The position numbers were made by a program, and so were the translations under genes. 64,000 nucleotides of DNA, from the NCBI RefSeq assembly GCF_022227845.1, contig NZ_JAJNQN010000005.1:1-64000 (forward strand), written 5' to 3'. This stretch comes from Ectothiorhodospira lacustris. Lineage in GTDB: Bacteria > Pseudomonadota > Gammaproteobacteria > Ectothiorhodospirales > Ectothiorhodospiraceae. The notes beneath the pieces were generated by a model that searched no databases, was not told the origin of the DNA, and saw nothing but the letters and a program-made list of their open reading frames with translations. Of the stretch, positions 32,537 to 42,713 are shown in pieces. Numbering within the stretch: the stretch's first letter is position 1; each line of letters opens with the position of its first letter.

Positions 32537-33613
32537 ATGGGATTTTATATTCGCAAAGCAATTAGTGTCGGACCCTTCAGGTTCAATTTATCGAAATCCG
32601 GCGTTGGCGTATCAGCTGGAGTCAAAGGGTTACGTTTTGGAACTGGGCCTCGGGGTAACTACGTCCATATGGGAAGGGGAGTTTTGTATTACAGAAAAAC
32701 CTTACCCTCTGGTTCCACTGGAGGAAATCAAGCTCCAAATAGCCCTGAATTGCAGCAAAGTAACACCGAGATTGGGCATGAACCATTAAGAGAAATAGAG
32801 AGCGCGCATATCACACAGATGGTTGACTCATCATCGGCTGATCTCGTCGCTGAAATGAATGCCAATAGAAAGAAGGTAAGAATCTGGCCGTTTGTAGCAG
32901 TGCTTGGTGCTATTTTAACCTTCATCGCCTTTAAGAATTCAGAAACACCAACTCTTGCTCTTGTTATAGCAGCCGTTTCAGTCGCGCTCACTGTTTTTGC
33001 ATCGGTCAAAGACAATTTAAGAAAAACCACGGTTTTATTCTTTGATCTTGAGCCAGAAATAGAATCGCTTTATCAGAAACTTCATCATTCTTTCGAGCAG
33101 CTTTCATCATCGTCTAGCAAATGGCATATAGAGGCGGAGGGGGCTATCAAAGACAGAAAGCGTAATGCTGGCGCAACGAACGTAATCAAACGAACCTCAA
33201 TATCACTGGGCATAGGGAATCCTCCGTATGTAAAAACCAATGTATCAATTCCATCCATACCAGTTGGCAGGCAAACCTTATATTTTTTCCCTGATAAGGT
33301 GCTTATTTTTGAGCCAAATGGTGTTGGCGCTGTGAGTTATCCAAATCTTCGAATATCGGTGGAAAGCACACGGTTTATCGAGGATGGAAGTGTCCCAAAA
33401 GATGCAAAGGTTGTTGATAGAACTTGGAAATATGTTAATAAGCGAGGCGGCCCAGATAAACGCTTCAAAGATAATCTTGAATTGCCAATAACCTTATACG
33501 AAGACCTGAACTTCACAAGTGATACAGGGTTAAATGAACGAATTGAAATATCAAGGGTTGGTCATGGGGACGGCTTCTCAAGTGCTATCGCCATGTTGGC
33601 AAAAAGCATCTAA
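32537..33613 (+). CDS. DUF4236-type membrane protein in cassette 2
   Basis: 358 residues. The N-terminus MGFYIRKAISVGPFRFNLSK with the following Gly-rich SGVGVSAGVKG is characteristic of DUF4236, a short beta-rich domain at the start of many uncharacterised proteins. Two hydrophobic segments (about 116-131 and 136-152) make it a membrane protein with both large parts on the same side. The C-terminal 200 residues (beginning KDNLRKTTVLFFDLEPEIES) are unassigned. ATG 32537 follows GGGAG by 8 nt and lies 22 nt after attC 1. The stop TAA uses the intron boundary: TA is exon and the last A is supplied by intron or, after splicing, by attC. Confidence 0.8.
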   Translation: MGFYIRKAISVGPFRFNLSKSGVGVSAGVKGLRFGTGPRGNYVHMGRGVLYYRKTLPSGSTGGNQAPNSPELQQSNTEIGHEPLREIESAHITQMVDSSSADLVAEMNANRKKVRIWPFVAVLGAILTFIAFKNSETPTLALVIAAVSVALTVFASVKDNLRKTTVLFFDLEPEIESLYQKLHHSFEQLSSSSSKWHIEAEGAIKDRKRNAGATNVIKRTSISLGIGNPPYVKTNVSIPSIPVGRQTLYFFPDKVLIFEPNGVGAVSYPNLRISVESTRFIEDGSVPKDAKVVDRTWKYVNKRGGPDKRFKDNLELPITLYEDLNFTSDTGLNERIEISRVGHGDGFSSAIAMLAKSI

Positions 33614-34441
33614 TCGGATAGCCGGGGGTTTTTCTCCGCCGGCCTTCACAACACCCCGCATGCGGGTCCGCACGGGGCGTTTCCTCCGGAGTTCAAAGGA
33701 CCATGCAACCATGGTGACCTTCAACGCTGGTTACCCAACGAATCGCCAAGGCCGTTTCACCCGGTCGGGCGCATTACGGCCGTTGAGACACGCGGGTCTC
33801 TCTCGTTGCCGGAGGTTCGGGCCTTCACCGTGTCTCACCCATTACGGTGAGCATTTGGCTACTATGCCGTCTGCTGACTTCTGCCTCATCACGCCAAGCG
33901 TTGCCGATTGGCGCGCTGTCCGGGTCACGGTAGGGTCCGGTGGTGATTCCAGTCCTTTCGGGCTGGCCCTCAGTCCGGCTCCCATGGCGACCACAGCCCC
34001 GGTAGGGTTCGATGGTTATTCCGGCCCTTTCGAGCCGGCCCTCAGTTCGACTCCCATAGGGACACGGACCGCAAGTGAGACAGATCTCCCCGAATAAGAA
34101 CATGAACTTTCAGTGCACAACCGCCGCATTTACCCTATCCCCTGCACCTGATGGGCTTTGTCACCTTGTGCTGACTCGCCCGGGGACTAAGCCTTCTATG
34201 CGATTTACTCGCCCCATCCCTGGGGCTCGCCCTTCGGGCCAGCCTGCGGCTGTTCAAAATCGCTCCCGGCGATTTTGTCTGTCCGTCGGCTCGCACCTTT
34301 GCGCTCGGGCTTCCTTCAGACATTCCCTCACGGGTTTGCCCTGGCCGTCGGCTAGTAGTTACAGTCGTTCACAGTGTGGACATCACAGGTACTCCTACAG
34401 GGGACTTTCACCCCATCAGTTCATGCCCGTGTCGGGCGTAC
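33613..34441 (-). mobile_element. Group IIC-attC intron copy 1 (ORF-less, both ends present)
   Basis: 829 bp on the minus strand. The 5' end reads GTACGCCCGACACGGGC and soon GGGGTGAAAGTCCCC, typical of group II domain I. The 3' end has domain V (33650-33683) and a domain VI hairpin with an A seven nt before the terminal CCGAT. It sits between GCATCTA and ACAAGC of an attC; joining these restores R'' ATCTAAC. No reverse-transcriptase frame remains, so mobility would need help in trans. A 72-bp segment is tandemly duplicated at 33929-34072. Two conserved frames inside (33534-34097 and 34075-34518) follow intron homology and are not taken as genes. Confidence 0.85.
33650..33683 (-). ncRNA. Group II intron domain V, copy 1
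   Basis: 34 nt on the minus strand. Lower stem A-A-A-C-G-C-C-C-C-G pairs with the 3' arm, with triad C-G-C containing the expected G.U wobble, a two-nt TG bulge, and the upper stem TGCG/CGCA. Compared with 35316-35349, three stem positions change in a compensatory way, supporting an RNA fold. Confidence 0.8.
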
Positions 34442-34520
34442 ACAAGCAAAGTCACAGCGACAGCTTTTCCGTTGCGGCTATCGATTCCACTTCAAAGCTG
34501 CGCGTGCTTTGGTGTTAGCC
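34442..34520 (+). other. attC recombination site 2 (right part, split by intron 1)
   Basis: The right part runs from ACAAGC through an imperfect palindrome (arms around ACAGCTTT and AAAGCTGC) to R' GTTAGCC at 34514-34520. The left R'' half, ATCTA, lies at 33608-33612 on the other side of the intron. Joined, the site has R'' ATCTAAC. The PIN gene starts 2 nt after it. Confidence 0.8.
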
Positions 34521-34521
34521 T

Positions 34522-35274
34522 ATGAAAAAGACCGCAATCTTTTTGGATACGAACGTACTACTTTCTATATTTGGCCGTTACCGGAATGGGTGCAAAGAGT
34601 CGTTCATAATGGACTCCCAAGACTTTAAACGGATTACCTTTGAGAAATGTACTTACGAATCATATTTAGCATTCAGAGGGATTGGAGGGAAAAAACCAGA
34701 TGAAGGGAGGCAGGATTGGGCAAATAGATTTCTAAAGAAAGAATCAGACCCCATTCCGTTAGGAGATGCAGCAGGGAAGCTTCATCAAGGTTCCATCTTT
34801 CATGCCCACTATTGGGTTGGTCAGGCTGACGAAACTCAATATGTGCTGCCAGAGAATTATGACCAGTACATGGAAAGAGTGAAAAGATATGTGCGTAAAG
34901 AAGATTGGGATGCGGCTTCGCTAGACTGGGAGAAATATCAACTGATATTTCAAAATCACAGAAAGTACCAGTTATTATTTTCAGAGTTCAGGGGCTTCCT
35001 TGAAACCATTCAATGCGCGGTTACTTCGTATGAAGAGCTGTACAGGCAATCTGAATATTTGCGCAGGCTTGAAATTATGGAAGGCATAAGCCAGCGCTCA
35101 ACGATTCCAAATGAAGATTTTGAAATCGTTGTGGCAGCTCTTCTTTCAGAGTGCAATGCATTCGTAACGATGGATCACCGCTTATTAAAAGCGGCAGCGA
35201 GTATTGAAGCAAATATCAAGACTTGTGTTTTTATACATTTAGACGAGGTTAAAGAGTATGCAAAATCAAAATAG
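34522..35274 (+). CDS. PIN-domain protein in cassette 3
   Basis: 250 residues. The N-terminus FLDTNVLLSIFG holds the first acidic PIN residue. Near the C-terminus, IPNEDFEIVVAALLSECNAF and VTMDHRLL supply the remaining metal-binding acids. The middle (about 60-190) is longer than in VapC toxins and is mostly charged helix. PIN domains are Mg-dependent RNases. No antitoxin-like gene is adjacent, so it is either a stand-alone nuclease or an orphan toxin. The ATG is 2 nt after the attC R' box and lacks a Shine-Dalgarno. GC is low, as for the other cassettes. Confidence 0.8.
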   Translation: MKKTAIFLDTNVLLSIFGRYRNGCKESFIMDSQDFKRITFEKCTYESYLAFRGIGGKKPDEGRQDWANRFLKKESDPIPLGDAAGKLHQGSIFHAHYWVGQADETQYVLPENYDQYMERVKRYVRKEDWDAASLDWEKYQLIFQNHRKYQLLFSEFRGFLETIQCAVTSYEELYRQSEYLRRLEIMEGISQRSTIPNEDFEIVVAALLSECNAFVTMDHRLLKAAASIEANIKTCVFIHLDEVKEYAKSK

Positions 35275-35315
35275 GCTAATCGGGTAAGGGTAGGTGTTTA
35301 GCCCGCCCTCCCCAC

Positions 35316-35349
35316 ACCACCTAGCATGCGGGTCCGCACTAGGCGGTTC
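35316..35349 (-). ncRNA. Group II intron domain V, copy 2
   Basis: 34 nt on the minus strand beginning GAACCGCCTAG. The CGC triad pairs with a G.U wobble, the TG bulge and TGCG/CGCA upper stem are kept, and stem changes relative to the copy at 33650-33683 are compensatory (C-G for A-T, T-A for C-G, A-T for C-G). This copy pairs best and lies next to a maturase remnant. Confidence 0.85.
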
Positions 35350-35373
35350 ATAAGAAGGGAGCACACGACGATT

Positions 35374-35619
35374 TCAGGCGCAACCATGCGCTTTCATCCA
35401 TTGATCGCGGATGCTGATCAAGCCCTGGCATTGCAGCCAGTCATTGGTCATCCCGGTCTGGGTGCCGAGGGATCGGGACAGGTGCCAGTAGCTTTTGGAA
35501 CTCATGCCTGTCCAGATGGCGTGGCGAGAAATCCAGCCGGTTCCGGCGCCGGGGTAGTTAACGGCCGAAGTGCGCAATTCAGTGATGACCAGCCATCCTT
35601 CGTGGGGATTCCCCGCGGT
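35374..35619 (-). pseudogene. Group II intron reverse transcriptase/maturase, C-terminal remnant
   Basis: An open frame running from the 446-codon gene's stop to 35374 encodes about 80 residues. It includes ELRTSAVNYPGAGTGWISRH, SKSYWHLSRSLGTQTGMTND and QGLISIRDQWMKAHG, which resemble the maturase C-terminus of intron-encoded reverse transcriptases. It lies just upstream of domain V in the expected orientation and place. Everything N-terminal has been lost at the junction near 35601-35620, where an IS-end-like repeat occurs. Confidence 0.75.
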
Positions 35620-36960
35620 CTATGGCAGCACTTGGGGCGTTAGCAGGAAGGTCAGCACAAACAAGGCCAACGCACCACCGGCACGGATCGCAAGACCCGA
35701 ACCATTCCAGCCCACCTGGAGAAACCCAGGTATCACGGCGCCGACCACGGATACCGCCAAGCTGAGTAGAATCCGTAGCATGACTACAAAGTTCTGGTCG
35801 GCAAAAGGCTCGTTGCGAATCACGAGATATCCCACCAGGCCGACGATGAACAGGGCTGTGATCGCGCCCAACATGCGCTCCCAAGGCTTAGCATGCCACC
35901 TTTCCTGCATGATTTTTTCCGCCTCTTCCTGTTTTTTGAGATCACCTAACAGTCCTTCGGAGGCCGTGAGCAAGCTTGTCAGCTCTCCAGTCCAGGCCGT
36001 GCTATGGGACTCATACGCCACGTCGAGGATGTTCCGCTGTCTGGTGCCATAGCGCTTCTCCTTTCCGAGCAGCTTCGACAGCGTCTCCAGATACGTGATC
36101 AGATGATTTGCCGCATCGGAAAGTGGCGCGGGTCTGAGATTCGTTTGGGTAGCCTGGACAACGCGTTGAAGACATTGCACTTCGCTATGGACACGTATCA
36201 AATGCATGCGTAGCTGACGTGCCTGATCCCTCCGAGCCCCCCTGCCAATCTGCAAGACCCAGCAACCGATTGGCGTGGAACATTTCGGCAAGGTCTTGCG
36301 AAAAAAACGCAAATTGCTACCGGGGTCGGGAATGGCATCCACACCGACACTGTATTCCGGCAGCACAAGCACCTCCGAGGCATCGAGTTCGATGACGACC
36401 AAGGGTTCCCCGGCCGCACACCACCAACGTTCGGTAGGATAGGGTTGGCCGCTGCGATCCTGTCGAGTGGTGGCGATCCGAAAATGGTCAGCCAAGGCAT
36501 CAGCGGCTGCAGCCAGTGCAACATTGCGTCTGCCGTCACGTCCTGTCGATACCCTGACCGGTAGGACCGCCAAGGCTTTAACAAGCTCTATTGCCGGCAG
36601 ATGCGTGCAGCCAGCTGCGTCACCAGTGGCAACGCGAAAACCGATTTCGAAGCGGGATGTTGCCTTTCCGGTACGAAAATAGCGCCGAAACAGATGGTAA
36701 AACCGCACCTGACAGCCATTCCACGACAGATAGCTCCAGGCAGCGTCCCGCGGCAGCAGGCAAGCACCGCGGGCGCGACAGAACATATCCTCCCCCTGAG
36801 CAACCTGGCTGCCGCCCTGCAGACGCACATGCACCATGCCGGTATCACGGATGAAGTGCTTTCCCGGTTGCGCGGGAACCGTCGGTTTGGGCAGGCGATA
36901 GGTTTTGGATGTCGTAAAGGATCGCAAGTCCGTGATGGGGAAGGCGAAAAGGATCAGCAT
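35620..36960 (-). CDS. Membrane-tethered protein of unknown function, passenger between IS-like ends
   Basis: 446 residues. About 1-350 is soluble, including LFRRYFRTGKATSRFEIGFR and WWCAAGEPLVVIELDASEVL, and a charged helical stretch (about 318-350, GLLGDLKKQEEAEKIMQERW). Two or three hydrophobic segments close the protein: ITALFIVGLVGYLVI, ILLSLAVSVVGAVIPGFL and GGALALFVLTFLL. I recognise no catalytic motif. The strong ribosome site GGAGGG is 6 nt before ATG 36960, so it is probably expressed. It runs opposite to the cassette genes and lies between CGTGGGGAT at 35601 and the inverted ATCCCCACG at 37278, suggesting movement as an IS passenger. Confidence 0.75.
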   Translation of the reverse strand: MLILFAFPITDLRSFTTSKTYRLPKPTVPAQPGKHFIRDTGMVHVRLQGGSQVAQGEDMFCRARGACLLPRDAAWSYLSWNGCQVRFYHLFRRYFRTGKATSRFEIGFRVATGDAAGCTHLPAIELVKALAVLPVRVSTGRDGRRNVALAAAADALADHFRIATTRQDRSGQPYPTERWWCAAGEPLVVIELDASEVLVLPEYSVGVDAIPDPGSNLRFFRKTLPKCSTPIGCWVLQIGRGARRDQARQLRMHLIRVHSEVQCLQRVVQATQTNLRPAPLSDAANHLITYLETLSKLLGKEKRYGTRQRNILDVAYESHSTAWTGELTSLLTASEGLLGDLKKQEEAEKIMQERWHAKPWERMLGAITALFIVGLVGYLVIRNEPFADQNFVVMLRILLSLAVSVVGAVIPGFLQVGWNGSGLAIRAGGALALFVLTFLLTPQVLP

Positions 36961-37000
36961 CGAATCCCTCCGAGACTATCAATCACGGACGCGGAATAAA

Positions 37001-37030
37001 GCGGCCGGAAGGTCGAACCTTACCGGCCGC
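37001..37030. promoter_or_regulatory. Strong inverted repeat upstream of the 446-codon gene
   Basis: GCGGCCGG-A-AGGT and ACCT-TA-CCGGCCGC flank a CGA loop, 41 bp upstream of ATG 36960. It may be an operator, an attenuator-like leader hairpin, or the terminator of a lost neighbour. No T-run follows on either strand. Confidence 0.4.
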
Positions 37031-37203
37031 ACGCGGCTCTGCGCTTTCACGCACTGCCATGAGGTCGTTCGCCGAAGCAAATCGACACTCGGGCCAAGCA
37101 GACCGAGTATAGATCGAAATAAAGAGCTTGGCAGGCGGATGATCCTGAGAGAAAAAACCACCCCAGGCCGGCCTGAACCACCACATTGGACACGCCCATC
37201 CCG

Positions 37204-37242
37204 ATTTTGCTGATTGAGTTGCTGGAGCCGGTGGAGGCATAA
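37204..37242 (+). pseudogene. Fragment of a TetR-type gene 3' end
   Basis: Twelve codons ending in a stop encode ILLIELLEPVEA, nearly the same as the last residues of the TetR at 30106-30750 (AQLLMELLEPVEA). The 20-bp core TTGCTGGAGCCGGTGGAGGC is identical in both. No upstream part of the gene is present. It lies between the 446-codon gene and the IS4 left end. Confidence 0.6.
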
Positions 37243-37276
37243 ATACCCCCTGGTGGCTGCAGCTCTGAGCCTGGGC

Positions 37277-38616
37277 TATCCCCACGTTTTTGCGGGCGGA
37301 ATTCCTTGTGAAACAGGGGGATAAGGGGAGATGGGGGTGGACATGCACCGGCAAGATCGTGATTCTTTAAGGTGACGAAGCCAAAAAAGAGCCACGAAAC
37401 ACACCGATGCGCGCCACGGACCTGATTCACGCAAACTTGGGGGTTGCTTGTCAATCCATTCACCGCACCCGCTTCAACGCGCTGCTGATCGCCACGGCGG
37501 CGGCTCTGGACGGGCAGACCACCTCGGTCACCGGTCTTGGCCGGGCATCGCAGCGAAAGATCACCGAAAAGGCGAACATCAAGCAGATGGATCGGCTTGT
37601 CGGTAACCCCAGGATGCATCGGGAGGCAACGACGGTTTATCAGGCCATGACCCACTGGCTGGTGGGGCAGGAAGGGCGCCCGGTGATTCTGGTGGATTGG
37701 TCGCCGGTGGCGGTGAATGAGAGCATTCACGTGCTGCGCGCATCGCTGCCCGTGGGCGGCCAGGGAAGAACCCTGTACCAGGAGTGTCACCCTCAGGCCA
37801 AGTACGCTAACCGAGAGATCCAGGAGGACTTTTTGAAGCGCCTCTCGGAGGTTTTGCCCACCGGAGTCTGCCCGGTGATCGTCACGGACGCCGGTTTCAA
37901 GAAACCCTGGTTCCGCGCCGTGGAAGCCTTGGGCTGGGACTGGGTGGGCCGAGCGCGAGGCTTGGTCCAGATGACGCGGCCGGGCGAGGATACTTGGCTC
38001 AATACCCGCCAGCTGGGGAGCTTGCTGGATGAGAATCAGCCGACCTTCATGGGTGCCTTTGCCATGACCCGCAACGATTCGCTGGTGTGCCAGGTGTATG
38101 GCCTGCGCAAGACTCTCCAGGGGCGTATTCATGCGACCCGGTCTGGCCAGCGGTCCCAGAGCAGTAAAAGTCGTGCGCATGCCGCTGGCAAACGGGAACC
38201 CTGGGTGATTGCCACCTCCCTGCCTGGAGGGTCGAAGATCACCGAACGGGTGACAGAGCTCTATTCGTTGAGGATGCAGATTGAGGAGGATTTCAGATCC
38301 AGCAAGAACGAGCATTATGGACTTGGCGTGAATCGTTCCCGTTCCCGCTCTGCGCAACGATTTGACGTGCTGCTGCTGATTGCTGCCCTGGCCAGCTTCG
38401 CGGCCTGGTTGGTGGGTCTGGCAGCAGGGCATGAGGGGCGCCATCGACATTACCAACCGAACACTGCCAAGCGACGGGTGCTATCCCATTTTTTCCTGGG
38501 CTTGAGGGTATTGCGGCGAGAATCCGCCAACATCCTCGACGACACCTTACACCGCATCAGATCGGCCATACGATCCGTGTTTGCCGCCGGGATCCCTGCA
38601 TGATTTCGTGGGGATA
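37277..38616 (+). mobile_element. IS4-family insertion sequence
   Basis: About 1340 bp. Terminal inverted repeats begin TATCCCCACG at the left and end CGTGGGGATA at the right (10 of 10), with weaker matches inside. It encodes one DDE transposase. It interrupts group IIC intron copy 2. I see no clear target-site duplication, possibly because the flank was rearranged together with the neighbouring passenger gene. Confidence 0.8.
37407..38603 (+). CDS. IS4-family transposase
   Basis: 398 residues, apparently full length. The DDE residues lie in VILVDWSPVAVNES (first Asp), PVIVTDAGFKKPWFR (second Asp) and the IS4 signature Y-2-R-3-E-6-K in ELYSLRMQIEEDFRSSK. It fills the IS between its inverted repeats. 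GC is near that of the core, unlike the cassettes around it. The frame is uninterrupted, so the element may still be active. A long opposite-strand frame over the same bases is a shadow. Confidence 0.92.
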   Translation: MRATDLIHANLGVACQSIHRTRFNALLIATAAALDGQTTSVTGLGRASQRKITEKANIKQMDRLVGNPRMHREATTVYQAMTHWLVGQEGRPVILVDWSPVAVNESIHVLRASLPVGGQGRTLYQECHPQAKYANREIQEDFLKRLSEVLPTGVCPVIVTDAGFKKPWFRAVEALGWDWVGRARGLVQMTRPGEDTWLNTRQLGSLLDENQPTFMGAFAMTRNDSLVCQVYGLRKTLQGRIHATRSGQRSQSSKSRAHAAGKREPWVIATSLPGGSKITERVTELYSLRMQIEEDFRSSKNEHYGLGVNRSRSRSAQRFDVLLLIAALASFAAWLVGLAAGHEGRHRHYQPNTAKRRVLSHFFLGLRVLRRESANILDDTLHRIRSAIRSVFAAGIPA

Positions 38617-39123
38617 CTCCAGCGTCTGCTGGCTTCTGCCTCATCACGCCAAGCGTTGCCGATTGGCGCGCTGCCCGGGTCACGGTAGGGTCCGGTGGTG
38701 ATTCCAGCTCTTTCGGGCTGGCCCTCAGTTCGACTCCCATAGGGACACGGACCGCAAGTGAGACAGATCTCCCCGAATAAAAACATGAACTTTCAGTGCA
38801 CAACCGCCGCATTTACCCTATCCCCTGCACCTGATGGGCTTCGTCACCTTGTGCTGACTTGCCCGGGGACTGAGCCTTATATGCGATTTACTCGCCCCAT
38901 CCCTGGGGCTCGCCCTTCGGGCCAGGCTGCGGCTGTCCAAAATCGCTCCCGGCGATTTTGTCTGTCCGTCGGCTCACACCTTTGCGCTCGGGCTTCCTTC
39001 AGACATTCCCTCACGGGTTTGCCCTTGCCGTCGGCTAGTAGTTACAGTCGTCCGCAGTGTGGACATCACAGGTACTCCACGGGGGACTTTCACCCCATCA
39101 GTTCATGCCCATGTCGGGCGTAC

Positions 39124-39180
39124 ACAAATCAAGGCAGCAGGACGCCAGCGGAGCTGGCGCCTCTGCTTGAAGCGTTAAGA
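39124..39180 (+). other. attC recombination site 3 (right part, split by intron 2)
   Basis: From ACAAATC through the stem CAAG(G)CAG.. CGCCAGC / GCTGGCG..CTGCTTG to R' GTTAAGA at 39174-39180. The left half GGCTA is at 35274-35278. The extra G in one arm is the expected extrahelical base. Reconstituted R'' is GGCTAAC. Confidence 0.75.
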
Positions 39181-39190
39181 GACAAAGACT

Positions 39191-39655
39191 GTGGAAATCG
39201 TTCCTCTGGCTGACAAGAAAGAGTTCATTACGGAGTTGGCGAAGCTCCACCATTCAGAGTGGAGGCATTTGAACCCCTCGCTTACACTGGAAGGTCGAAC
39301 CGAAGCAATTTCCAAAGCTGCAAGACGAGAGGGTATTCCTTCAATCTTTGTTGCTGTTTCAGGGAGTCAGCTTATTGGTTCGGCTGCTCTAGTACAGAAC
39401 GACATGGACACTAAACCGGATTTATCCCCTTGGCTGGCTGCCGTTTATGTCAAAGAGTCTTTCCGGCATCACGGAATAGCAACTGGATTGATCGCTCGGT
39501 GCGAAGCTGAGGCAGTTCGCTCCAGTGCTGATACTTGGTACCTCTATACTGAATTCGCCTCGAAAATTTATGAGAAGCTTGGGTGGCGCCATCTAGAAAG
39601 ATGCAAATATAAAGGAGTCGCGGTCGATGTTATGTGCAAGCAGATTACCTCTTAA
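39191..39655 (+). CDS. GNAT-family N-acetyltransferase in cassette 4
   Basis: 154 residues starting at GTG 39191, 10 nt after the attC R' box. GNAT features: strand LIGSAALVQNDMD, then LAAVYVKESFRHHGIATGLI with the acetyl-CoA pyrophosphate loop HHGIAT, and the C-terminal KIYEKLGWRH. The substrate is unknown; cassette GNATs often modify antibiotics or small amines, but nothing here identifies one. The stop codon lies in the R'' box of the next attC, so this is a compact, intact cassette. Confidence 0.88.
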   Translation: MEIVPLADKKEFITELAKLHHSEWRHLNPSLTLEGRTEAISKAARREGIPSIFVAVSGSQLIGSAALVQNDMDTKPDLSPWLAAVYVKESFRHHGIATGLIARCEAEAVRSSADTWYLYTEFASKIYEKLGWRHLERCKYKGVAVDVMCKQITS

Positions 39656-39733
39656 CCGGCGCAGGCACAGCGACGGCCTTTTCGTTGCGGCTGCGCCTCC
39701 ACTACAAGGCCGCGCGTGCTACGGGCGTTAGGC
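39650..39733 (+). other. attC recombination site 4 (intact)
   Basis: R'' TCTTAAC (39650-39656) and R' GTTAGGC (39727-39733) flank an imperfect palindrome whose arms include GCACAGCGACGGCCTT and AAGGCCGCGCGTGC with unpaired bases. At 84 bp it is longer than attC 1 and resembles the stem in attC 2, suggesting a shared attC lineage. No intron is inserted here. Confidence 0.82.
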
Positions 39734-39766
39734 ACCGCCCAATATTGCAAACTATGGGAGTTGTAA

Positions 39767-40129
39767 ATGAATGTAGAAATTCTAAGAATTCGGGAGAGAA
39801 CCCTTGATGGAATGCGCAGTTATATGGAGGCGGTTCTTGAGGATAAAGGCGATCCTGGCTACACCGAGGCGGATATAGAAAAGTGTGGTGAGATACTTGA
39901 TTCATACATTCAAAGAGTCTCATCCAGTGACCATGGAGACGAACAAGCCGTAATGTCAGTAGTCAAGGACACGGTCTTAGCACTAAACATATTAAATTTG
40001 GAGTCTGGCGAATCTCTCATCGAAACAGATCAACGCGAAGACTTGGCTGAATTGATTATCAAAGCAGCTGCTGATGTAGGGGTTGGCAATGGTAAAGATG
40101 ATCTAACTGAGGAATGGCGCGAGTGGTAA
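39767..40129 (+). CDS. Small acidic protein of unknown function in cassette 5
   Basis: 120 residues, strongly acidic and helical, with no membrane segment. Notable stretches are YTEADIEKCGEILDSYIQRV and ESLIETDQREDLAELIIKAA. A ribosome site GGGAG lies 6 nt before ATG 39767, 34 nt after the attC. No family assigned. Its attC has been replaced by a heavily deleted group IIC intron remnant. Confidence 0.72.
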   Translation: MNVEILRIRERTLDGMRSYMEAVLEDKGDPGYTEADIEKCGEILDSYIQRVSSSDHGDEQAVMSVVKDTVLALNILNLESGESLIETDQREDLAELIIKAAADVGVGNGKDDLTEEWREW

Positions 40130-40141
40130 CACATCAGCCTA

Positions 40142-40307
40142 ATCGGATAGCCGGGGGTTTTTCTCCCCCGGCCTCCACAACACCCCGCATGCGGGTCCGC
40201 ACGGGGCGTTTCCTCCGGAGTTCAAAGGACCATGCAACCATGGTGACCTTCAACGCCATAGGTACGTTGGTCCACACTGTGGACATCTCAGATGCTCCAG
40301 CAGGAAG
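40142..40307 (-). mobile_element. Group IIC-attC intron copy 3 (heavily deleted)
   Basis: The 3' end is nearly identical to copy 1: domain VI (GCCGGGGG/CCCCCGGC, branch A at -7) and domain V at 40179-40212, entering after GCCTA of an attC R''. After about 110 bp the match breaks, and a short piece like domain I (around CACTGTGGACATC) follows. The 5' end and the right half of the attC are not recognisable. The deletion joined the acidic-protein cassette to the higBA promoter. Confidence 0.75.
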
Positions 40308-40312
40308 CCTTA

Positions 40313-40341
40313 TTGTTGCGTGATGCGCAACGTGCTAGCAT
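40313..40341 (+). promoter_or_regulatory. higBA promoter with operator in the spacer
   Basis: TTGTTG (-35) and TAGCAT (-10) are 17 nt apart. A perfect inverted repeat GTTGCG-TGATG-CGCAAC (40315-40331) overlaps the -35 and fills most of the spacer, as expected for an autorepressed toxin-antitoxin promoter. The higB ATG is only 7 nt after the -10, which predicts a leaderless transcript. Confidence 0.65.
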
Positions 40342-40347
40342 TGCCTC

Positions 40348-40626
40348 ATGATCAAATCATTCCGTCACAAAGGACTGAAGCGGTTCTACGCGACTGGCAG
40401 TACGTCTGGCATACAGCCGGATCATGCCAAGAAGCTGCGTATGCAGCTGGCTGCTCTGGATACTGCTACTTCGGTGGAAGACATGGACATCCCTGGTTTT
40501 CGGCTTCATTCATTGAAGGGAAAGGACAAAGGCCGGTGGTCGATTCGGGTTGACGGAAATTGGCGCATAACGTTCGAATTTCAGGACGGCAACGCCTACA
40601 TTCTTGATTATGAGGATTATCACTAA
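40348..40626 (+). CDS. higB: HigB/RelE-family toxin
   Basis: 92-residue mRNA interferase of the HigB group (RelE superfamily) that cuts translated mRNA on the ribosome. Typical blocks are MIKSFRHKGLKRFY at the N-terminus, HSLKGKDKGRWSIRVDGNWR in the middle and ITFEFQDGNAYILDYEDYH at the end, with conserved Arg and Trp residues. Length matches HigB. Toxin-first order and the 1-nt overlap with the downstream antitoxin are classic for higBA. No Shine-Dalgarno is present, matching a leaderless start. Confidence 0.93.
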   Translation: MIKSFRHKGLKRFYATGSTSGIQPDHAKKLRMQLAALDTATSVEDMDIPGFRLHSLKGKDKGRWSIRVDGNWRITFEFQDGNAYILDYEDYH

Positions 40627-40919
40627 TGACTATGCATAATCCGCCGCATCCTGGTGAGTTCATTCGCCAGGTGTATCTGGAGCCTTTCGGTATTAGCTCT
40701 CGTCAGCTTGCTTCAAGTCTGGGTGTTTCCCCCTCCACGTTGTCCAGGCTGCTCAAAGGAGACAGTGGTATCAGTCCCGAAATGTCTCTGCGGTTATCCA
40801 AGGTTCTTGGGCGTACTCCTGAAAGTTGGCTCGCGATGCAGGATATGTACGATCTTTGGGTGGCCCGCAAAACGGTCAACCTGGATGACATTCACCCTCT
40901 GAACTTTGAAGCAGCCTAA
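40626..40919 (+). CDS. higA: HigA-family antitoxin
   Basis: 97-residue XRE-type helix-turn-helix protein. HPGEFIRQVYLEPFGISSRQ and LGVSPSTLSRLLKGDSGI carry the HTH, and RTPESWLAMQDMYDLW is the HigA family block. It neutralises HigB and should repress the operon through the palindrome at 40315-40331. Its ATG overlaps the higB stop by one base. The stop TAA lies at the junction with the next intron remnant (GCCTA then ATCG), as in other cassettes. Confidence 0.93.
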   Translation: MTMHNPPHPGEFIRQVYLEPFGISSRQLASSLGVSPSTLSRLLKGDSGISPEMSLRLSKVLGRTPESWLAMQDMYDLWVARKTVNLDDIHPLNFEAA

Positions 40920-41098
40920 TCGTATAACCGGGGTTTTTTCTCCCCAGACTTCCACAATACCCGCACGCGGGTCTCTCTCGTTGCCGGAGGTTCGGGCCTT
41001 CACCGTGTCTCAGCCATTACGGAGCATTGGTCATTCCGGCTCTTTCAGTAAGACCTCAGTTCGACTACCATTCAGTTCGATTCTCGCAGAGACACCAA
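40919..41098 (-). mobile_element. Group IIC-attC intron copy 4 (degenerate, domain V deleted)
   Basis: The entry sequence GCCTA then ATCGTATAACCGGGG and a domain VI-like hairpin show the same insertion point as the other copies. The sequence then jumps from the domain V region into internal intron sequence also found in copy 1, near the shared GCGGGTC, so domain V is gone. The right boundary is uncertain. A weak R'-like GTTGAAC occurs near 41140. Confidence 0.6.
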
Positions 41099-41189
41099 TC
41101 CAGGTTGCAGCACCCCTTCGGTACCCCCGCTCCCACTGGCGTTGAACCATGCCGGCATCCATTCATGTTCGTTAAAGAGGCTTTCCACA

Positions 41190-41936
41190 TTGGATATCCC
41201 ACGTATCTTTAACATTACCGAAAGTGCTCACCGCATTCATAATCCTTTCACGCCAGAAAAGTTCGCCACCCTCGGCGCCGTGTTGCGCCTTGAACCCGGA
41301 ACTCGTCTGCTCGATCTCGGCAGCGGTTCGGGCGAAATGCTCTGCACCTGGGCACGGGATTTCGGGATTACCGGCATCGGTGTCGATATGAGTCAGTTGT
41401 TCAGCCAGCAAGCGAAACTCCGCGCTGAAGAACTCGGTGTCACCGATAAAGTGGAATTCATTCATGGCGATGCTGCCGGCTATGTCGCCGACATCAAGTG
41501 CGATGTGGCTGCATGTGTCGGTGCCACATGGATTGGTGGCGGAGTTGCCGGCACCATTGAGCTTTTGGAAAAGAGTCTCAACAGCAACGGGATCATCCTC
41601 ATCGGTGAACCCTACTGGCGTCAGTTACCGCCGTCGGAAGAGGTTGCCAAGAAGTGCTTTGCCAATTCCATCTCGGACTTTCATGGGCTTCCGGAGCTGG
41701 TTGCGTCTTTTGACGAGCTCGGCTACGACGTTGTGGAAATGGTTCTGGCGGATCAGGAAGGTTGGGACCGATACGAGGCGGCCAAATGGCTCACCATGCG
41801 CCGGTGGCTTGAAGCGAATCCCGATGACGACTTTGCACAAGAGATTCGATCCCAGCTGAATGACGCCCCCAGGCGCCACGTCGCATACACGCGTGAGTAC
41901 CTTGGATGGGGGGTATTCGCTCTGATGGCGCGGTGA
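41190..41936 (+). CDS. SAM-dependent methyltransferase in last cassette
   Basis: 248 residues. Motif I is LLDLGSGSGEMLCTW; VDMSQLFSQQ and DVAACVGATWIGG correspond to motifs II and III of class I methyltransferases. The N-terminus LDIPRIFNITESAHRIHNPF is where the family usually starts, so TTG 41190, preceded by AAAGAGG, is preferred over upstream ATG 41142 (a frame through intron-derived sequence). Substrate unknown. No clear attC follows, so it may mark the right edge of the array. GC is intermediate between cassettes and core. Confidence 0.82.
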   Translation: MDIPRIFNITESAHRIHNPFTPEKFATLGAVLRLEPGTRLLDLGSGSGEMLCTWARDFGITGIGVDMSQLFSQQAKLRAEELGVTDKVEFIHGDAAGYVADIKCDVAACVGATWIGGGVAGTIELLEKSLNSNGIILIGEPYWRQLPPSEEVAKKCFANSISDFHGLPELVASFDELGYDVVEMVLADQEGWDRYEAAKWLTMRRWLEANPDDDFAQEIRSQLNDAPRRHVAYTREYLGWGVFALMAR

Positions 41937-41976
41937 TGAGGGTCCGGCAATCCGGATAGTTTGAGGAACCTCGGGA

Positions 41977-42001
41977 GCACATGGCGATCATGGCCATGTG
42001 C
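41977..42001. terminator. Hairpin after the methyltransferase gene
   Basis: GCACATGGC and GGCCATGTGC form a stem about 40 bp after the stop codon. A T-run is short (TTT), so its terminator role is tentative. It also marks the return to core-like composition. Confidence 0.35.
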
Positions 42002-42098
42002 TTTCGGCAGCTGGAGAGTGGGCTGCCGATATCCCGAAAGCATGTTTGTCGGTAATCTTTTTTCCGAGCCTCATCCCACGCCTCCGATCCGGTGCCTC

Positions 42099-42713
42099 AT
42101 GCTCTTCACCTGCCCTGCCTGCAAGCGGAAGACCATCTTTTTCCCCACCGTGCTATTGCATGTCTGGGGCAGGTGGCCCCACTCCGCGGCCAACCGGTTC
42201 GAGTGTACCCATTGCCACGCGGAACTGGCCTGCCACTACTCGCCGGTACCCTTCCTTTTGCTCGGCGCCATCCTGCAGATCCTGATTCTGCAAAGCGGCG
42301 CAATCAGGGATCTCTGGATGGGGGCGCTGATCGCGGCCGGGCTGGCGTTGTTCTTCTTCCCCATCCGGGATGCGTTGAACATGTCGCTTCTTTTCCATCG
42401 TTTTCCGGTGCGCCGGTTCAAAAATCCCTTCGATCAGGGCTTTTACTACATTGAGAGCAGGTTGCTGTCGCAGTGGGTGTTCGTGCTGGTGGCCGGGCTC
42501 ACGCTGAAGTCGCTGGTTCAGGCCAACCCCGGGGCCCAGGCCCATGCGGGGTCGATGGTGTTTCTGCTGTTGGCGGGGGTGGTGGGTCTGGCTGCCGCCA
42601 TTGCCTATGGCTTTGCCATCTATCGTATCGGTCGGCATGGCACGCTGCCGCGGGTCGGTGTGAATGTGGCGCTGATGATCGGGGGGGTGGTGATGGTTTA
42701 TTTCTGGCGTTAG
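42099..42713 (+). CDS. Zinc-ribbon membrane protein of unknown function
   Basis: 204 residues from ATG 42099. The N-terminus MLFTCPACKRKTIFFP plus FECTHCHAEL forms a four-Cys zinc ribbon. Four hydrophobic segments follow (about 48-63, 66-83, 120-138, 146-165) with a fifth at the C-terminus (about 180-200). The cytosolic zinc ribbon on a polytopic membrane protein is seen in several uncharacterised families. I cannot name the function. Longer frames upstream start in non-conserved sequence and are not used. Confidence 0.65.
   Translation: MLFTCPACKRKTIFFPTVLLHVWGRWPHSAANRFECTHCHAELACHYSPVPFLLLGAILQILILQSGAIRDLWMGALIAAGLALFFFPIRDALNMSLLFHRFPVRRFKNPFDQGFYYIESRLLSQWVFVLVAGLTLKSLVQANPGAQAHAGSMVFLLLAGVVGLAAAIAYGFAIYRIGRHGTLPRVGVNVALMIGGVVMVYFWR

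What the first reader, a model, noticed from the sequence alone, without database searches (positions are those of the whole stretch)
33613..34441. An 829-bp group IIC-attC intron whose removal regenerates an attC site
Minus-strand sequence from GTACGCCC to CCGAT splits an attC exactly in R''. Joining GCATCTA to ACAAGC gives R'' ATCTAAC, then the palindrome and R' GTTAGCC. This fits the known habit of group IIC-attC introns to enter the bottom strand of attC sites opposite to the cassette genes. It lacks any reverse-transcriptase frame, so it would be a small non-autonomous intron.
Basis: partly seen in the sequence, partly recalled or inferred. Interest (0 to 1): 0.8.

Follow-up and report, generated by a model that had tools for sequence, protein, structure and literature searches.

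The report
RT-less group IIC intron in integron
The 829-base insert looks like a mobile intron that has lost its own reverse-transcriptase gene, sits inside an integron recombination site, and belongs to a family of such stripped-down introns that appears to have spread through several bacterial genera by borrowing the enzyme of full-length relatives.

Summary
Window 33613-34441 (minus strand) is a group IIC-attC intron with both ends and no reverse-transcriptase domain. Rfam finds D1-D4; a D5/D6 model built without this copy scores it 86 bits. Removal gives an attC that aligns gap-free across the junction with two intact attCs of the same genome. EBS1 pairs 5/5 with its exon; TTGT precedes 34 of 42 distinct intron starts found.

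It is not a one-off. The same compact, RT-less domain IV occurs in 12 genomes of eight genera, with compensatory changes supporting its fold. Copies 96-99% identical to this one have flanks no more alike than shuffled sequence. The same genome has a 2002-nt relative with an open 548-codon RT frame. New here: the family is mosaic. Up to position ~550 this intron matches the local RT-bearing intron; beyond it, it matches another IIC clade, and trees of the two halves conflict at 100/100. A 71-nt palindromic repeat sits in domain I.

Best reading: a non-autonomous IIC-attC lineage mobilised in trans. This copy has two broken D6 pairs, so its present activity is uncertain. Splicing and mobility are inferred, and no empty allele was found.

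The parts
33613..34441 (-). RT-less group IIC-attC intron with both ends, 829 nt (copy A)
   Evidence: Ends shared with relatives; Rfam D1-D4 hits; D5/D6 model 86 bits
33608..33612 (+). Left part of attC R'' (ATCTA). The TAA stop of the upstream cassette gene (32537-33613) uses the first intron base and reads TAA with or without the intron
   Evidence: Sequence, ORF list
34442..34520 (+). Rest of the attC: AC of R'' at 34442-34443, palindrome, R' GTTAGCC at 34514-34520. On the minus strand 34446-34442 is IBS1 CTTGT
34098..34441 (-). Domain I (3' limit approximate); Rfam D1D4-3 covers 34098-34337
34165..34169 (-). EBS1 loop ACAAG, pairs 5 of 5 with the exon CTTGT
   Evidence: place read from the sequence
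34207..34277 (-). 71-nt three-hairpin palindromic repeat (REP/MITE-like, name by resemblance) inside domain I
33820..33915 (-). End of domain II plus domain III (Rfam D1D4-1)
33683..33815 (-). Compact domain IV without RT (limits approximate); its first part aligns with the start of the RT frame of other IIC introns
33650..33681 (-). Domain V, all model pairs intact
33613..33647 (-). Domain VI and 3' end; bulged A (candidate branch point) at 33619; two of 12 pairs broken in this copy
35279..39123 (-). Copy B: A-type domains I-III at the 5' end (about 38612-39123), RT-type 3' end with an RT C-terminal remnant (35279-35538), about 3 kb of other DNA with a DDE transposase between them; same attC logic (GGCTA|ACAAATC)
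40142..40305 (-). Copy C: A-type 3' end with a large internal deletion and a lost 5' end (outer limit approximate, read from the sequence)
40919..41071 (-). Copy D: degraded A-type 3' part

Best explanation
Copy A is a non-autonomous group IIC-attC intron. An ancestral IIC intron lost the RT gene from domain IV but kept the ribozyme domains and the attC-targeting loop. Its RNA would be spliced and reverse-spliced into the bottom strand of single-stranded attC hairpins at TTGT|T in R'', with reverse transcription by the RT of full-length relatives in the same cell (for example C49:2330-4331). At this site the insertion splits R'' from the rest of the attC and so probably blocks excision of the upstream cassette, while keeping that gene's stop codon. 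SHOWN by sequence: ends, target, EBS1/IBS1 pairing, RT loss, shared domain IV, copies at sites with unrelated flanks, an open RT-bearing relative in the same genome, mosaic structure. INFERRED: splicing, trans-mobilisation, the cassette-locking effect.
For: Rfam D1-D4 hits and D5/D6 at 86 bits. D5/D6 covariation over 19 distinct sequences: 57 cells changed on both sides against 18.2 +- 2.9 in shuffles and at most 7 in slid versions. Domains IV-VI over 10 sequences: 19 pairs with double change against 5.0 +- 1.7, slid at most 6. EBS1 was found at 25 of 42 starts; 23 of the 25 pair at all four positions next to the intron, including a compensated T. drewsii pair, ACGA with TCGT. Nine copies with this domain IV have both ends and no N run. 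Copy A against the G003 and G002 copies: introns 98.8 and 96.4% identical, 57-nt 5' flanks 54.4 and 50.9%, 150-nt 3' flanks 54.7 and 52.0%; shuffled 57-nt flanks 49.6 +- 4.3. For eight copies (28 pairs), introns average 82.5%, flanks 54.1 and 53.3%, shuffled flanks 51.4 and 51.8%. RT relative in the genome: open 548-codon frame, PF00078 4e-39, TIGR04416 403 bits, best solved relative GsI-IIC RT 7.7e-131. Model R1 (domains IV-V) gives near-full-span hits above 60 bits in 7 of 369 class genomes and 7 of 144 relatives, two overlapping draws: 12 genomes, of which G123, G246 and G294 were not used to build it; domain IV homology is visible in their alignments.
Against: No RNA or mobility data. Copy A has two broken D6 pairs. 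The driver may not recognise domains III-VI, which differ strongly from its own (A against the own RT intron: D3 63%, D4 49%, D5D6 49%). Not every copy is an independent insertion: the 5' flanks of the G003 and G002 copies are 78.9% identical (shuffled maximum 64.9), though their 3' flanks are not (50.0%), and an 837-bp higBA stretch with intron ends is 96.3% identical in Thiorhodospira. Of 20 further domain IV-V hits examined, none had both ends by my motifs. In the D5/D6 count the number of further pair types does not exceed the shuffles (269 of 500 reach it).
Confidence: 0.8

Rival explanations
1. Dead remnant: copy A is a fossil deletion derivative, and copies spread only with cassettes or by homologous recombination between introns.
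For: Two broken D6 pairs; many truncated copies; higBA with intron ends shared between genera at 96.3%; related 5' flanks of the G003 and G002 copies; chimeric copy B and a chimera in G003; an RT-bearing intron with the same 71-nt repeat.
Against: Copy A and its 96-99% identical relatives have unrelated flanks, whereas a cassette move would carry the attC along. Domain IV keeps compensatory changes across genera. EBS1 pairs with different exons.
Confidence: 0.25
2. Independent recent RT losses in several genomes, with no lasting RT-less lineage.
For: L060 (730 nt) and L048 6294-5926 (369 nt) are separate internal deletions of the RT-type intron.
Against: The nine A-type copies share one homologous compact domain IV, found by one model in 12 genomes. 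In the D3+D5/D6 tree the RT-less rows fall on one side of a branch, though weakly (61/71, 62% of bootstrap trees).
Confidence: 0.1
3. The 829 nt are an ORF-less gene cassette or another mobile element, not an intron.
For: It lies in a cassette array and has no long frame.
Against: Domains I-VI, EBS/IBS pairing, antisense orientation and RT-bearing homologues.
Confidence: 0.01

Closest known systems
Group IIC-attC introns (S.ma.I2 and relatives; PMC7923331, PMC8876359, PMC9229058, passages read)
   Same: Bottom strand of attC, TTGT/T inside R'', opposite to the cassettes
   Different: No RT; compact domain IV; mosaic of two IIC clades; starts GUACG instead of the GUGYG consensus
Thermosynechococcus elongatus TeI3 ORF-less introns (PMC2882425, passages read)
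   Different: Another intron class (class of TeI3 recalled, not read); one genome there, eight genera here; targets are integron attC sites; 5' half exchanged with the RT-bearing type
Truncated IIC-attC intron UHB.F1 (PMC7923331, passages read)
   Same: Defective IIC-attC intron in a cassette array, from a soda-lake metagenome
   Different: 5'-truncated with frameshifts, not an RT-less ribozyme with both ends

Membership tests
Group IIC-attC intron | Group II domain fold D1-D6 | tested here: met
   covariation; no full tertiary model was made
Group IIC-attC intron | Insertion at TTGT/T in R'' on the attC bottom strand, opposite to the cassettes | tested here: met
   rule as stated in PMC7923331
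Group IIC-attC intron | Consensus ends 5' GUGYG ... AY 3' (quoted in PMC7923331) | tested here: inconclusive
   Ends AU as expected but starts GUACG; the RT-bearing relatives listed start the same way, so it looks like a family variant
Group IIC-attC intron | Class C RT | tested here: inconclusive
   Absent from this copy; the C49 relative has an RT nearest to GsI-IIC among solved structures; no RT class tree was built
Group IIC-attC intron | Splicing and retrohoming activity | not testable with these tools
   Needs RNA or mobility assays
Trans-mobilised ORF-less group II introns (TeI3 type) | One shared ORF deletion in domain IV | tested here: met
   Homologous compact domain IV in the aligned copies; exact deletion end points not established; its start resembles the RT frame of G101 and G404 (no statistical test)
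Trans-mobilised ORF-less group II introns (TeI3 type) | Copies at several sites with good EBS/IBS pairing | tested here: met
Trans-mobilised ORF-less group II introns (TeI3 type) | Driver RT in the same genome | tested here: met
   G000 C49, open 548-codon frame. In G007 and G013 the best matches are only 36% (residues 135-481) and 35% (315-543); G007 also has 89% fragments
Trans-mobilised ORF-less group II introns (TeI3 type) | Driver RT acts on the ORF-less RNA | not testable with these tools
   Assay needed

The most novel reading that the evidence does not exclude
A long-lived non-autonomous intron lineage of integrons that stays mobile by module exchange: the RT-less core (domains III-VI) arose in one IIC clade and took over domains I-II, with EBS1, from the RT-bearing intron of its new hosts, so that it can follow the resident driver RT. 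G246 would show the form before the swap (D1 of the G101/G404 clade) and Ectothiorhodospira the form after it. The many RT-less copies would also seed recombination that reshapes cassette arrays.
Probability: 0.3. Interest if true: 0.75.

Novelty: new variant of a known kind. Interest (0 to 1): 0.6.

Why it matters
A review (PMC4424553, passages read) calls ORF-less group II introns rare in bacteria, describes introns without IEPs as splicing-only, and notes that those known nearly always share a genome with a related RT-bearing intron. PMC2882425 (passages) shows mobility in trans in T. elongatus. Here a compact RT-less IIC type recurs in 12 genomes of eight genera and is tied to integron attC sites. 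Surveys that look for the RT would miss it. It offers a natural test of which intron domains such an RT needs in trans, and of the proposal (reported in PMC7923331) that IIC-attC introns take part in cassette formation.

Tried and rejected
Rfam RF00029 does not report D5/D6 of copy A even at E up to 1; two broken D6 pairs are the likely reason, and the family model R2 does find it. An outward promoter inside the intron, as described for S.ma.I2 (PMC8876359): the simple scan found one promoter-like site, outside the intron at 34544-34571; not supported, not excluded. Tandem repeats: none by TRF, although domain II holds two diverged copies of about 64 nt (cross-hits). Empty allele at the locus: not found. 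The viral-contig scan gave three RT-encoding loci; L093 was used in trees. Plasmids: 348 records match, none with one place over 80% of the query; whether those hits lack an RT was not followed up. The D1 tree kept the repeat in four rows and lacked G101 and G404, so one search replaced it. Flank identities counted only aligned columns, gave high values also for shuffled flanks (mean 70.5 and 69.9) and 90 for the 57-nt G003 flank; others (eight copies, G003 left out; G003 at 57 nt) replaced them. The first EBS1 motif found nothing and was corrected. The tenth two-ended copy (G013, 400 nt, with a run of N) was dropped from counts.

Literature limits: searches listed no paper that I could recognise as reporting an RT-less IIC-attC lineage; I read passages of eight papers, not every paper listed. 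The primary papers PMC2747902, PMC2525955 and PMC2714756 are not held, so absence from print is not established.

Full report
Observation. The minus-strand segment 34441-33613 starts GTACGCCC and ends CCGAT. Its + strand neighbours are GCATCTA and ACAAGC; joined they give R'' ATCTAAC, and R' GTTAGCC follows at 34514-34520. Two intact attCs of the same genome (L011 11081-11168 and window 39646-39740) align with the joined site without a gap at the junction; two other stretches that I cut around the G007 and G004 hits did not align usefully. The bottom strand folds as an attC hairpin, z -3.17. Among 144 genomes no other carries both flanks, so no true empty allele was seen; short attC hits in G004 and G007 cover only three bases to the left of the junction.

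Fold. Rfam places D1D4-3 and D1D4-1 on this strand. D5/D6 is missed by RF00029 but found by model R2, built from 21 other copies, at 86.0 bits, E 1e-16 (E-values of such models are rough); domain V is intact and two of 12 domain VI pairs are broken. The D5/D6 structure has 57 double-changed cells against 18.2 +- 2.9 in shuffles and at most 7 in slid versions, and 10 double-changed pairs against 7.6 +- 0.8 (3 of 500 shuffles reach it); the number of further pair types does not exceed the shuffles (269 of 500). The compact domain IV with V and VI shows 19 double-changed pairs against 5.0 +- 1.7, slid at most 6; that structure was predicted on the same alignment, which favours it.

Target recognition. 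Among 42 sequence-distinct intron starts in all fetched loci (RT-bearing and RT-less, some of them the same site in two genomes), 34 have TTGT before the intron. An EBS1 loop was found for 25; 23 of these pair at all four positions next to the junction, and copy A pairs 5 of 5. T. drewsii has changed both partners (ACGA with TCGT).

No RT in this copy, but one in the genome. The longest frame in copy A is 94 codons; it corresponds to residues 2-84 of the long frame of the RT-bearing intron, before the RT homology from residue 131. The genome has one PF00078 match, in a 2002-nt intron at C49:2330-4331 in another attC; its 548-codon frame is open and matches TIGR04416 at 403 bits and the GsI-IIC RT structure at 7.7e-131.

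Family. Copies with both ends and the same compact domain IV: window A 829, G003 828, G002 828, G007 643, G013 651 and 685, T. drewsii 751, G241 673, G219 758 nt. They are not all sound: G007 has lost part of domain I and the 685-nt G013 copy part of domain V. A tenth (G013, 400 nt) contains N and was dropped. Names by equal contig length: G003 Ectothiorhodospira shaposhnikovii beta1, G002 E. shaposhnikovii DSM 243, G004 E. magna, G013 Thiorhodospira sibirica; T. drewsii AZ1 by record title. Ectothiorhodospira and Thiorhodococcus are Gammaproteobacteria of two families. Model R1 (domains IV-V) passes 60 bits over nearly its whole span in G000, G123, G147, G219, G241, G246 and G294 of 369 class genomes, and in G000, G002, G003, G004, G007, G013 and G123 of 144 relatives; the draws overlap. 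Together 12 genomes with eight genus labels. At E 0.001 the tallies are 31 of 369 and 18 of 144, but many of those hits are short D5 matches that RT-bearing introns also give. G123, G246 and G294 were not in the training set; alignments of eight loci confirm domain IV homology, weakest in two G219 copies and one of G123 (64-74 bits), and the G294 copy is a short derivative in which the 5' end runs almost straight into domain IV. Of 20 further hits in 19 loci, none had both ends by my motifs; two had a 5' end only.

Dispersal. Copy A against G003 and G002: introns 98.8 and 96.4% identical, flanks 50.9-54.7%, shuffled 57-nt flanks 49.6 +- 4.3. G003 against G002 is different: 5' flanks 78.9% (shuffled maximum 64.9), 3' flanks 50.0%, so their attCs are related. 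For eight copies (28 pairs), introns 82.5% on average; 150-nt flanks 54.1% (48.0-60.0) and 53.3% (47.3-62.0), against shuffled 51.4 and 51.8%. Shared site: window 40139-40974 (higBA with intron ends) is 96.3% identical to Thiorhodospira. G002:C59 is 98.4% identical to window 38977-42099 and has an A-type domain IV at the copy B site.

Mosaic. Against copy A, the own-genome RT intron is 91, 97 and 84% identical in D1a, D1b and D2 but 63, 49 and 49% in D3, D4 and D5D6; RT introns of G101 and G404 show the reverse (75, 62-66, 36-37% then 86, 51-52, 82%). In 50-nt windows the change falls near position 550: RT_G000 78 to 60, RT_G101 54 to 92, RT-less G246 62 to 92, T. drewsii 80 to 92. In the D1 tree a 100/100 branch separates G246, G101 and G404 from the other 13 rows, the local RT introns among them. 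In the D3+D5/D6 tree a 100/100 branch separates five RT introns of the local type from all nine RT-less rows plus G101 and G404 (G246 not included, its 3' end being absent). The two splits conflict, which supports recombination. The direction is inferred. The start of domain IV of G147 and G246 resembles the beginning of the RT frame of G101 and G404 (no statistical test), which fits an origin by RT deletion in that clade.

Repeat in domain I. Positions 34207-34277 form a 71-nt three-hairpin palindrome also found in A-type copies of G002, G003 and G013 and in one RT-bearing intron of G006, but absent from another A-type copy of G002 (L055), from T. drewsii, G241 and G219 and from the own RT intron. 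In the own genome it was found only in copies A and B, while related repeats are scattered in other genera. It suggests spread after its gain and passage through another host (inference).

RT status elsewhere (13 genomes chosen by me; T. drewsii not tested by name): matches of 97% identity or more in G000, G002, G003 (one TAG), G004 (residues 34-445) and G006. In G007 and G013 the best matches are 36% (135-481) and 35% (315-543), with 89% fragments in G007, and their two-ended copies carry internal deletions. Suggestive, with few cases.

Mechanism and limits. Splicing, reverse splicing into single-stranded attC, reverse transcription in trans and blocked cassette excision follow from knowledge of IIC introns (PMC7923331, PMC2882425; passages), not from data here. 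Papers of which I saw passages: PMC7923331, PMC4424553, PMC8919778, PMC2882425, PMC12350094, PMC8876359, PMC3552965, PMC9229058.

Noticed in passing
window 35279-39123: Copy B joins an A-type 5' half to an RT-type 3' half with about 3 kb of other DNA between, including a DDE transposase (37407-38603) and a 446-aa minus-strand frame (35620-36960) without a Pfam match.
   Followed up: partly
window 40139-40974: higBA toxin-antitoxin cassette between two intron remnants, 96.3% identical in Thiorhodospira sibirica, where the downstream intron has both ends (L051 2796-3446).
   Followed up: partly
window 34207-34277 and 38890-38960: 71-nt three-hairpin repeat found in this genome only inside introns but scattered in many related genomes.
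   Followed up: partly
L069 4930-5168 (E. shaposhnikovii beta1): A-type 3' half joined to an RT fragment (91% identical to RT residues 411-445): another recombinant between RT-less and RT-bearing introns.
   Followed up: no
own genome C9:92005-93750 (L096, L102, L103): Integron integrase (425 bits) at a contig end, next to a split Y1-type transposase; the window array is on another contig.
   Followed up: no
own genome C12:183688-184012: Two D5/D6-like hits 242 bases apart, start to start, below the Rfam cut-off.
   Followed up: no
own genome C49:9996-10070 (L013): A D5/D6 hit above the Rfam cut-off, after a frame that I read as RT-like without a search; apparently another group II intron.
   Followed up: no
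L154 3168-3402 (G294): A very short intron derivative of about 235 nt: intron 5' start, domain IV remainder, D5 and D6, with most of D1-D3 gone.
   Followed up: no
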